Of a stretch of 64,000 nucleotides of DNA, positions 26,509 to 29,140 are shown piece by piece. The stretch's first letter is position 1; each line of letters starts with the position of its first letter. The notes under the pieces were generated by a model. That model was not told the DNA's origin, ran no database searches, and was given only the letters and a program-made list of their open reading frames with translations. The DNA is taken from NCBI GenBank assembly GCA_016208495.1, contig JACQXX010000148.1, forward strand, positions 1 to 64,000, in the 5' to 3' direction. The DNA comes from Acidobacteriota bacterium (GTDB lineage Bacteria > Acidobacteriota > Blastocatellia > Chloracidobacteriales > Chloracidobacteriaceae). The translations under genes and the position numbers were made by a program.

Positions 26509-26668
26509 TGGGACTGAAGATTCTCGGGCTGAAAACTTCGGGCTGAAGTCTCGCAAGCTTGGGGCTGAAGAACACGGGTTTCATACCCTGAGCCCGACGT
26601 CTTCAGCCCTGAGCCCGACGTCTTCAGCCCTGAGCCCCAAGCCCTGAGCCCCATGTCTTCAGCCTGCC
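26509..26668. repeat. GGGCTGAAG/CTTCAGCCC mirrored repeat, locus 1
   Basis: Units of GGGCTGAAG or GGACTGAAG on the left (26510-26570) face CTTCAGCCCTGAGCCC units on the right (26598-26665), giving a long imperfect hairpin. It follows the ATPase stop by a few bases. Related arrays lie at 39.7, 42.6 and 61.2 kb. Confidence 0.8.
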
Positions 26669-27736: not shown

Positions 27737-27790
27737 TTGACGCAATGCGTTAATTTTTTACTTGACTTAAATGACGCAGCGCGTTAATCT
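27737..27790 (+). promoter_or_regulatory. phaR promoter with paired palindromic operator-like boxes
   Basis: TTGACT (27762-27767), a 17-bp spacer and TAATCT (27785-27790) form a good sigma70-type promoter. Two similar palindromic boxes are present: TTGACGCAATGCGTTAA (27737-27753), upstream of -35, and TGACGCAGCGCGTTAA (27772-27787), filling the spacer and touching -10. Their centres are about 34 bp apart. A repressor bound here would block polymerase; autoregulation by PhaR, known from other bacteria, is the obvious candidate. Confidence 0.7.
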
Positions 27791-27853: not shown

Positions 27854-28504
27854 ATGCCACGACTCATCAAACGCTATGCAAACCGAAAACTCTATGATGC
27901 CACCGAACGCCGGTACATCACACTGGAAGAAATCAGCGAATTCATCCAGAACAATGAAGAAATTCAGGTCATTGATAAGGCCAGCGGCGAAGACATCACC
28001 GAACAGGTCCTGTCAAAAGTGATCGCGGCTTCGGCTCAACAATCTGACACGCCGATTTCAAAGAATGTTTTGGTGAGTTTAATCCAACGCCCGAGCGATG
28101 CCGTTCTGGGATATTTTCGCAAGACGGTGTCAGCCGGTTTTGAAACGATGAACCAGCTTGATCGCTTTGTGAAAACCCTGCGGGAAATGGTTCGCTACGA
28201 TGCGAATGGAACGGCGACCGACGATTTAGGTCCAGCGCTCCGGCTCGTGATTGAAAGCTTTGTTGATGATTGTGTTCAGACCCGATTGGCTGAACTACAC
28301 ATCCCGCACCAACAGGAAATCGAGAAGCTCCGCCAGCAGGTACAGCGCCTGGAGCGGCAAGTGAAAAGTCTTCAAAAGACATCACCCGTTGTTCCCCAGA
28401 CCGCTGTGGCGGCCCCGCCGCCAGTCGAAACGAATGGTGTTTCCACAGCCTCGACGCGCCGACGTTCACGCCGTGGCGATCAGGCGAAACCCACAGAGAT
28501 GTAA
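27854..28504 (+). CDS. phaR: Polyhydroxyalkanoate synthesis regulator PhaR
   Basis: A 216-residue DNA-binding regulator of PHA storage. The N-terminal PHB/PHA accumulation domain is unmistakable: IKRYANRKLYDATERRYITL, then DKASGEDITEQVLSKVI, followed by the PHB_acc region (NVLVSLIQRPSDAVLGYFRK). The C-terminal part is a coiled coil (IEKLRQQVQRLERQVKSLQK) and a basic tail. Family members repress phasin genes and their own gene and bind PHA granules. A phasin-like gene follows 69 bp later, and the promoter carries two palindromic boxes. Confidence 0.9.
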   Translation: MPRLIKRYANRKLYDATERRYITLEEISEFIQNNEEIQVIDKASGEDITEQVLSKVIAASAQQSDTPISKNVLVSLIQRPSDAVLGYFRKTVSAGFETMNQLDRFVKTLREMVRYDANGTATDDLGPALRLVIESFVDDCVQTRLAELHIPHQQEIEKLRQQVQRLERQVKSLQKTSPVVPQTAVAAPPPVETNGVSTASTRRRSRRGDQAKPTEM

Positions 28505-28573: not shown

Positions 28574-29140
28574 ATGGCAACCCGAAAGACCGTTACCCCA
28601 ACTGCGAAACCAACCATCAAGAGCCGTTCTCCACGTCGCCCAGCTTCCAAAATCGTGACCAAATCCACCTCGCCACGATTGGCTTTCAATCCAATTAACC
28701 TGGCGACTCAGGTGGCAACCAAGAGCCTCCGGCTGGGCCTGGGCACCGCACTGTTAATCTCTGAAAATGCGGTAAAGTTTTACAATGAAGCCATGGACCG
28801 TGGAAACAAAGTTGAATTGAACGTTCCAAACGTCAACTTCCCAACCCTCAACATCAACACGGAAAAGCTTGAGCAACTCCGCGAAATCCCAACCAATTCA
28901 TTGAATATGGTTCAGGAAAATATGCGCAAGCTGATGGATGAAGCTTCAACCCAGATTTCAAAGTTCTCACGCCGCCGCGAGAAAAAGCAGGACACCAACA
29001 TCGAAGAAGAAGTGATCAATGTGATTGAAACGCTCGATCTGCCAAAAAAGTCAGACCTCAAAGATTTCAAAAAACAGATCACTGAACTGTCAAAGAAAGT
29101 TGAAAAATTGGCCAGCACGCAAACCCCGGCCACTGCTTAA
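28574..29140 (+). CDS. Phasin-like PHA granule-associated protein
   Basis: A 188-residue protein with a basic, Pro/Ser/Lys-rich N-terminus (about 1-38), a hydrophobic to amphipathic segment (LATQVATKSLRLGLGTALLI) and a coiled C-terminus (LKDFKKQITELSKKVEKLA). This layout fits the PhaF/PhaI group of phasins, which coat PHA granules; the basic part could bind DNA. AGGAG lies seven bases before the ATG. Its position after phaR supports the call. No PHA synthase gene is in the window. Confidence 0.75.
   Translation: MATRKTVTPTAKPTIKSRSPRRPASKIVTKSTSPRLAFNPINLATQVATKSLRLGLGTALLISENAVKFYNEAMDRGNKVELNVPNVNFPTLNINTEKLEQLREIPTNSLNMVQENMRKLMDEASTQISKFSRRREKKQDTNIEEEVINVIETLDLPKKSDLKDFKKQITELSKKVEKLASTQTPATA

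What the first reader, a model, noticed from the sequence alone, without database searches (positions are those of the whole stretch)
27737..27790. Two matching palindromes around the phaR promoter
TTGACGCAATGCGTTAA and TGACGCAGCGCGTTAA bracket and fill a TTGACT-17-TAATCT promoter. The downstream box covers the spacer and touches -10, the classic place for a repressor site. PhaR is known to autoregulate elsewhere, but I do not know this site as the described PhaR target.
Basis: partly seen in the sequence, partly recalled or inferred. Interest (0 to 1): 0.6.

Follow-up and report, generated by a model that had tools for sequence, protein, structure and literature searches.

The report
Conserved operator of a PhaR-like repressor
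Two matching DNA palindromes wrapped around a promoter are very probably the binding sites through which a regulator of bacterial storage granules (a relative of PhaR) switches off its own gene and its partner granule-coat gene; the same site recurs before related genes in several bacterial phyla.

Summary
TTGACGCAATGCGTTAA (27737-27753) and ATGACGCAGCGCGTTAA (27771-27787) lie 34 bp apart around TTGACT; the second fills the spacer and overlaps the -10. They are the genome's only exact matches of the pattern. All 17 class loci of this gene have the spacer site (exact in 16); 15 of 17 have an upstream copy. Outside the class 18 of 68 loci have an exact site, 31 of 68 one within one mismatch; shuffles 0.15%. 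The core fits published PhaR motifs. An autoregulatory operator is well supported; binding was not tested.

Correction: the gene is not canonical phaR. It scores 73.9 against the PhaR cut-off of 109.45 and lies outside the PhaR clade. The canonical phaR sits beside PhaC-type genes and has another operator, TTCGCA-N2-TGCGAA. Among 69 further loci, nearly all non-acidobacterial, 19 have a wax-ester/triglyceride synthase beside the paralog and 0 a homolog of this genome's PhaC, although many of those genomes do encode PhaC. The group may serve storage granules in general.

The parts
27737..27753 (.). Operator copy 1 (upstream palindrome, TTGACGCA-A-TGCGTTAA), upstream of the -35
   Evidence: Sequence; a second copy in 15 of 17 class loci, imperfect in three of them
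27771..27787 (.). Operator copy 2 (ATGACGCA-G-CGCGTTAA), fills the promoter spacer and overlaps the -10
   Evidence: Sequence; present in 17 of 17 class loci at +16 to +18 from the start of the -35, exact to TDACGCRNYGCGTHA in 16 (L022 has one mismatch)
27762..27767 (+). Putative -35 element TTGACT
   Evidence: Sequence; TTGAC in the same place in 17 of 17 class loci
27785..27790 (+). Putative -10 element TAATCT (weak match to consensus, 3 of 6)
   Evidence: Sequence; not called by the consensus scan
27854..28504 (+). PhaR-like regulator, 216 aa ('type A'): PHB_acc_N DNA-binding domain plus a helical C-terminus with weak phasin similarity; probable ligand of the operator
   Evidence: PF07879 81.7 bits, PF05597 26.8 bits below cut-off; TIGR01848 73.9 bits, below cut-off 109.45; conserved operon
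28574..29140 (+). Phasin-like protein, 188 aa, probably co-transcribed
   Evidence: PF05597 and TIGR01837 matches below cut-off; homolog downstream in 17 of 17 class type-A loci

Best explanation
The two palindromes are the autoregulatory operator of the PhaR-like (PHB_acc_N, type A) regulator encoded just downstream, controlling an operon of that regulator and a phasin-like granule-coat protein. A PhaR-like dimer binds each TNACGCR-N-YGCGTNA palindrome (inferred); occupancy of the spacer site, helped by the site 34 bp upstream, keeps RNA polymerase off the promoter (inferred from position). When storage granules form, the regulator is titrated onto the granule surface and the operon is derepressed (inferred by analogy with PhaR). 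Shown here: the sites, their conservation at the same promoter position, their link to this paralog rather than to canonical PhaR, and the conserved regulator-phasin gene order. Not shown: binding, repression, co-transcription, the ligand.
For: Only two exact sites in the genome, both here. Spacer site centred at +16 to +18 from the -35 start in 17 of 17 class loci, TTGAC conserved, second copy 31-34 bp upstream in 15 of 17. Exact operator upstream of 16 of 16 class type-A genes scored, plus L018 read separately, and upstream of 0 of 24 type-B genes scored. Outside the class 18 of 68 exact and 31 of 68 within one mismatch, against 2 of 1,360 shuffles (0.15%) within one mismatch. A homolog of the window's phasin gene was found downstream in only 1 of the 68 non-acidobacterial loci (L185), so there the regulator gene, not that partner, is what the site follows. 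In Desulfobacterota the same operator also lies before patatin and WS/DGAT genes and before ORFs that I read as phasin-like. In the class TDACGCRNYGCGTHA occurs 54 times against 14 for the reversed control in the 17 type-A genomes, and 39 against 79 in the 41 without type A. The core equals the S. meliloti PhaR core. In the class type A occurs with a PhaC_N match (E<=0.001): 14 of 17 against 2 of 41.
Against: No binding or expression data. 37 of 68 outside loci have no site within one mismatch in the 350 bp before the domain, and 3 of 25 type-A genomes searched (G069, G070, G087) have no exact site anywhere, so the rule is not universal. The exact motif marks no other gene in this genome. Canonical PhaR binds its own promoter only weakly in R. 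eutropha, P. denitrificans and S. meliloti, and S. meliloti showed if anything weak positive autoregulation; R. sphaeroides shows mild negative autoregulation, about 130% of wild type in the mutant. G016 (99% complete) has type A, operator and phasin-like gene but no PhaC or WS/DGAT match, so the ligand is open. 3 of 24 type-B promoters have a type-A site within one mismatch. The association counts are not corrected for shared ancestry.
Confidence: 0.82

Rival explanations
1. The sites are bound by the genome's canonical PhaR (type B, encoded beside the PhaC-type genes) rather than by the neighbouring paralog.
For: Both proteins have the same DNA-binding domain, and published PhaR motifs share the YGCRNYGCR core with one central base. 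Three of 24 type-B promoters have a type-A site within one mismatch.
Against: Type-B promoters carry a different palindrome, TTYGCR-N2-YGCRAA (15 of 24 exact, 20 of 24 within one mismatch, shuffles 2.7%; 0 of 16 class and 0 of 68 outside type-A promoters within one mismatch), and 0 of 24 carry the exact type-A operator. G011, G013, G016 and G017 have type A and operator but only one match in the search with the window protein, so no type B was found there.
Confidence: 0.08
2. Another transcription factor binds here (for example a nutrient or redox regulator) and the PhaR-like gene is merely its target.
For: No binding data exist; a symmetric palindrome alone does not name its ligand.
Against: The motif follows this one gene in loci titled Acidobacteria/Blastocatellia, Desulfobacterota-type and Chloroflexi/Dormibacterota, is not enriched in class genomes lacking it (39 matches against 79 control), and has the core known for PhaR.
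Confidence: 0.08
3. Palindrome 1 followed by a T run is a weak intrinsic terminator of the upstream methyltransferase-like gene, and the pair is coincidental.
For: The terminator scan flags 27737-27753 plus TTTTTT (7 pairs, 3 G-C, loop 3); 1 found against 2.7 expected in shuffles.
Against: Nearly the same sequence recurs inside the promoter spacer without a T run, both copies are conserved at near-fixed distance, and the stem is short.
Confidence: 0.02

Closest known systems
PhaR / AniA operators of S. meliloti phaP1 and phaP2 (PMC12542648, passages)
   Same: Core YGCR-N-YGCR palindrome with AT-rich arms; two copies flanking the -35
   Different: Here the outer arms are TNA...TNA, the gene controlled is the regulator's own operon, and the regulator is a paralog outside the PhaR clade
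PhaR operators of R. eutropha phaP1 and phaP3 (PMC12849132, passages)
   Same: Palindrome with one central base; phaP1 sites beside the -35 and -10/TSS, steric repression proposed
   Different: Consensus YTKNTGCRNYGCANMAR is missed at 3 and 4 of 17 positions; the R. eutropha phaR promoter fragment is bound about as weakly as control DNA (PMC3570403 passages)
Autoregulated regulator-phasin operons: phaRP of Haloferax mediterranei and phaQ-phaP of B. megaterium (review PMC9049629, passages)
   Same: Regulator gene followed by a phasin gene and repressing its own operon
   Different: Haloarchaeal PhaR is described with an AbrB-like domain and PhaQ as a possible separate class; here the domain is PF07879

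Membership tests
Canonical PhaR (TIGR01848 equivalog) | Score above the curated cut-off of 109.45 bits | tested here: not met
   Window protein 73.9 bits; four class orthologs tested score 60.7-77.7, four type-B proteins tested score 109.7-118.0
Canonical PhaR (TIGR01848 equivalog) | Groups with proteobacterial PhaR in a tree | tested here: not met
   Type B plus 4 proteobacterial PhaR-type proteins form a branch supported 100/98; the window gene lies outside (106 columns for 67 rows, root by midpoint, deeper forks uncertain)
Canonical PhaR (TIGR01848 equivalog) | PHB_acc (PF05233) granule-binding domain | tested here: not met
   No match at E<=0.001 in the window protein or in two orthologs; 68.9 and 65.5 bits in two proteobacterial PhaR; 20.9 and 22.6 bits, below the cut-off of 27, in two type-B proteins
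PHB_acc_N (PF07879) DNA-binding family | Pfam gathering score 25 bits | tested here: met
   81.7 bits, residues 4-62
PhaR-type operator | YGCR-N-YGCR palindromic core | tested here: met
   Both sites match; the stricter R. eutropha consensus with at most 3 mismatches is met by site 1 only
PhaR-type operator | Bound by a PhaR-family protein | not testable with these tools
   Needs EMSA, footprinting or DAP-seq
PhaR-type granule-sensing repressor | Released from DNA by binding the storage granule | not testable with these tools
   Analogy only (passages)
Phasin (PF05597 / TIGR01837), downstream gene | Score above curated cut-off (28.8 / 94.7 bits) | tested here: not met
   25.8 and 27.3 bits; called phasin-like only

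The most novel reading that the evidence does not exclude
PHB_acc_N regulators are not PHA regulators only: the type-A lineage, with its own operator TNACGCR-N-YGCGTNA, is a general storage-granule sensor that in Desulfobacterota governs wax-ester/triglyceride droplets (coat protein, patatin lipase, WS/DGAT), while within one acidobacterial genome two paralogs, A and B, run separate granule-coat circuits kept apart by a changed operator (one versus two central bases, ACGCA versus TCGCA half-sites).
Probability: 0.33. Interest if true: 0.68.

Novelty: new variant of a known kind. Interest (0 to 1): 0.47.

Why it matters
It gives a testable operator for a large group of PhaR-domain proteins (332 pattern hits, 325 confirmed relatives), shows that a gene readily taken for phaR can be a paralog with its own circuit, and links that circuit to neutral-lipid genes in some lineages. 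The A/B pair in one genome is a ready case for studying how PhaR-type DNA recognition diverges. The predicted model of the window protein has no PDB match at E<=0.001 by fold, and its profile finds none by sequence (best E 0.034, a synthetic helix).

Tried and rejected
Wider regulon in the own genome: the exact pattern gives only the two sites. TNACGCRNYGCGTNA with one mismatch has 44 matches against 31 for the reversed control, little above background; I did not read them all. I read the 6 one-mismatch hits (L003-L008): none shows an obvious storage-granule gene, though L003 lies about 145 bp before an enoyl-CoA-hydratase-like ORF (my reading). No A site within one mismatch in the own PhaC stretch (L102) or around the own WS/DGAT gene (L272).

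Other class sites: of 20 stretches read, 11 have the site inside a long coding ORF (PurL-like, RpoC-like and others, my reading), 5 lie at one glycosyltransferase-like gene, 4 elsewhere. Probably mostly chance.

Idea that type A in Acidobacteriota follows WS/DGAT: not supported, 2 of 17 against 12 of 41 (p 0.19); PhaC_N does, 14 of 17 against 2 of 41 (p 7e-9), uncorrected for phylogeny. One of the 14 (G009) is below the family cut-off.

Structure: AlphaFold2 model mean pLDDT 67.9, pTM 0.32, residues 1-60 about 84-91; Foldseek against PDB no match at E<=0.001.

Rows dropped: L018 (search string did not fit its domain; its two sites were read), L185 (147 bases upstream), L039 (domain string not found; so 24 of 25 type-B genes). 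11 of the 80 loci are the same places as class loci already counted (judged from identical neighbour scores) and were left out of the 69; one search kept the best 80 of 325. The tree used 25 of the 69 outside loci and 17 of 25 type-B genes. One search was given 44 of the 80 loci and 7 class genomes; the same 44; one search was given 25 of those genomes, chosen mostly because a site had been seen.

My first checkpoint note gives the -35 one base too far right; the report's coordinates are the corrected ones.

Full report
WHAT IS THERE. Two palindromes with one central base, TTGACGCA-A-TGCGTTAA (27737-27753) and ATGACGCA-G-CGCGTTAA (27771-27787), have centres 34 bp apart. TTGACT (27762-27767) lies between them, and the second palindrome fills the 17-bp spacer and runs into TAATCT (27785-27790). 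The next gene starts at 27854. TGACGCANNGCGTTA has exactly two perfect matches in the 8,375,582-base genome, both here; the symmetric form TDACGCRNYGCGTHA also has two, its reversed control two as well. Over the 64-kb window with two mismatches allowed there is no excess (6 against 4.48 expected). So the significance rests on two exact copies at one promoter and on conservation. The promoter is weak by consensus (-10 at 3 of 6; not called).

THE GENES. The downstream protein (216 aa) has a PHB_acc_N DNA-binding domain (PF07879, 81.7 bits) and a helical C-terminus with weak phasin similarity. It does not reach the PhaR equivalog cut-off (73.9 against 109.45 bits). It is followed 69 bp later by a 188-aa phasin-like gene (below family cut-offs). 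A homolog of that gene lies downstream of the regulator in 17 of 17 class loci. Neighbours (methyltransferase-like, DUF6079, LytB family; FtsH-like by my reading) are not storage genes.

CONSERVATION. Among 58 class genomes (own included), 17 have this 'type A' gene (YANRKLYD). All 17 loci have the palindrome in the promoter spacer, centred 16 to 18 bases from the start of a conserved TTGAC; it fits TDACGCRNYGCGTHA exactly in 16 and with one mismatch in L022. In 15 of 17 a second copy lies 31-34 bp upstream, imperfect in three (L013, L016, L017). A scan of named genomes kept the best 80 of 325 relatives; 11 repeat class loci. Of the 69 others one upstream stretch was too short; 18 of 68 have the exact operator and 31 of 68 a site within one mismatch, against 2 of 1,360 shuffles. 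By record title these include Desulfobacterota-type, Chloroflexi/Dormibacterota, one 'Bacillota' and one further acidobacterial locus. 37 of 68 have none within one mismatch. In the 41 class genomes without type A the pattern is not enriched (39 matches against 79 for the reversed control); in the 17 with type A it is (54 against 14).

TWO PARALOGS, TWO OPERATORS. The genome has a second PHB_acc_N gene on contig C17. It passes the PhaR equivalog cut-off (114.5 bits) and lies within about 3 kb of two PhaC-type genes (PhaC_N over its cut-off; class III PhaC model 350 and 330 bits, just under its cut-off of 365), with a small helical ORF and a PhaE-like ORF between (these two labels are my reading). 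Its promoter region and those of its orthologs carry another palindrome, TTYGCR-N2-YGCRAA: 15 of 24 exact, 20 of 24 within one mismatch (shuffles 2.7%). None of the 24 has the exact type-A operator, and none of 16 class or 68 outside type-A promoters has the B site within one mismatch. In a tree of the domain, type B joins four proteobacterial PhaR-type proteins (100/98) and the window gene lies outside (few columns, deeper forks unsure). So the window gene is a PhaR paralog. An exception to a clean separation: in three Chloracidobacterium-like genomes a one-mismatch type-A site lies in the spacer between phaR-B and a divergent small helical ORF, hinting at cross-talk.

MECHANISM. Published PhaR operators are palindromes with one central base. 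The S. meliloti core is YGCRNYGCR, and at phaP1 and phaP2 two copies flank the -35. In R. eutropha phaP1, sites lie beside the -35 and -10/TSS with steric repression proposed (passages of PMC12542648 and PMC12849132). The window sites have that core and that layout; against the R. eutropha consensus they miss 3 and 4 of 17 positions, and that paper allowed three. PhaR is described as leaving DNA for the nascent granule, which derepresses phasin genes (passages). The best reading is that the type-A protein binds both palindromes, blocks its own operon, and is titrated away when granules form. Position and conservation are shown; binding, repression, co-transcription and the granule step are inferred. 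Autoregulation by canonical PhaR is weak or mixed: near control DNA in R. eutropha (PMC3570403 passages), about tenfold weaker than at phaP in P. denitrificans, weakly positive in S. meliloti, mildly negative in R. sphaeroides (passages). A two-copy operator on the regulator's own promoter would be a stronger loop than these.

WHICH GRANULE? In the class, type A goes with PhaC_N (14 of 17 against 2 of 41, p 7e-9) and not with WS/DGAT (2 of 17 against 12 of 41; uncorrected for ancestry). In G017, without a PhaC_N match, a PhaC-like gene (213.8 bits, under the cut-off) lies about 2 kb from type A. These point to PHA. But G016 (99% complete) has type A, operator and phasin-like gene with no PhaC and no WS/DGAT match. 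Outside the class the neighbourhood differs. In the held stretches (at most 2.5 kb each side of the gene), 19 of 69 loci have a WS/DGAT homolog, 14 a patatin homolog and 21 a homolog of a Desulfobacterota ORF that I read as phasin-like, while two own PhaC-type proteins as queries found 0 of 69 (phmmer, E<=1e-6). The phasin-like label there has no Pfam support (no match at E<=0.001 for L255, L256 and L260 proteins, nor for the helical ORF of L270). The exact operator lies between divergent type-A and WS/DGAT genes in L255, L257, L258 and L261, between such a phasin-like ORF and a patatin gene in L256, and before such ORFs in L251, L255 and L260 (WS/DGAT confirmed by Pfam for L258 and L261, patatin for L256). 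Against this reading: only 5 of the 19 WS/DGAT-neighbour loci have the exact site before type A, and PHA synthase is common in the same genomes (class III PhaC match in 35 of 51 searched, over the cut-off in 16; WS/DGAT in 26 of 44). I take it as a real lead, not a result.

LITERATURE. Searches for PhaR operators, PhaR with Acidobacteria, Chloracidobacterium with PHA, PhaR with wax ester synthase, PhaR autoregulation, the PHB_acc_N domain and lipid-droplet regulators in Desulfobacter listed no title or abstract start describing this operator or this paralog split. Only open-licence full text is held and the listings were capped. I read passages, not whole texts, of six papers: PMC12849132, PMC12542648, PMC4400912, PMC3570403, PMC10888616 and PMC9049629. 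The taxon is inferred: the closest relatives are titled Blastocatellia and Chloracidobacterium, and the sizes of G004's two contigs fit C. thermophilum (recalled).

VERDICT. Real, conserved, well explained as a PhaR-type operator; the novelty is the paralog, its distinct operator and its spread to lineages where its neighbours are neutral-lipid genes.

Noticed in passing
L102 / L121 (G000:C17:9000-22000): Canonical phaR (type B) with two TTCGCA-N2-TGCGAA-like palindromes 115 bp apart (each imperfect) in the spacer it shares with a divergent small helical ORF, followed by PhaE-like and PhaC-type genes; the two-base-spacer palindrome recurs before type-B genes in the class.
   Followed up: partly
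G014, G021, G022, G025, G026, G037, G052, G056 (places): In these class genomes without a PhaC_N match the canonical-type phaR (type B) lies within about 10 kb of a WS/DGAT match (partial in G021), as if the regulator had moved from PHA to wax ester or triglyceride storage.
   Followed up: partly
L083, L086, L088, L089, L097: In five Chloracidobacterium-like genomes an exact type-A palindrome lies at or just before the start of the same glycosyltransferase-like ORF (ILTSDTGGGHTSAARALEAG); no promoter checked there.
   Followed up: no
L268, L269, L270 (G088, G099, G100): In Chloroflexi-titled genomes a second exact type-A site lies near a PfkB-like ORF; in L270 it sits in a promoter-like stretch before a small helical protein that may be a granule-coat protein (no Pfam match).
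   Followed up: partly
L255, L256, L258: Desulfobacterota carry a further PHB_acc_N paralog (YANGRFYD), in L255 and L256 downstream of an ORF read as phasin-like; a paired type-A operator with 26-bp spacing precedes these genes in L255 and L256.
   Followed up: partly
window 26570-26660: Short tandem-like repeats (ccctgagcccgacgtcttcag) between the DUF6079 gene and the methyltransferase-like gene, seen by eye.
   Followed up: no
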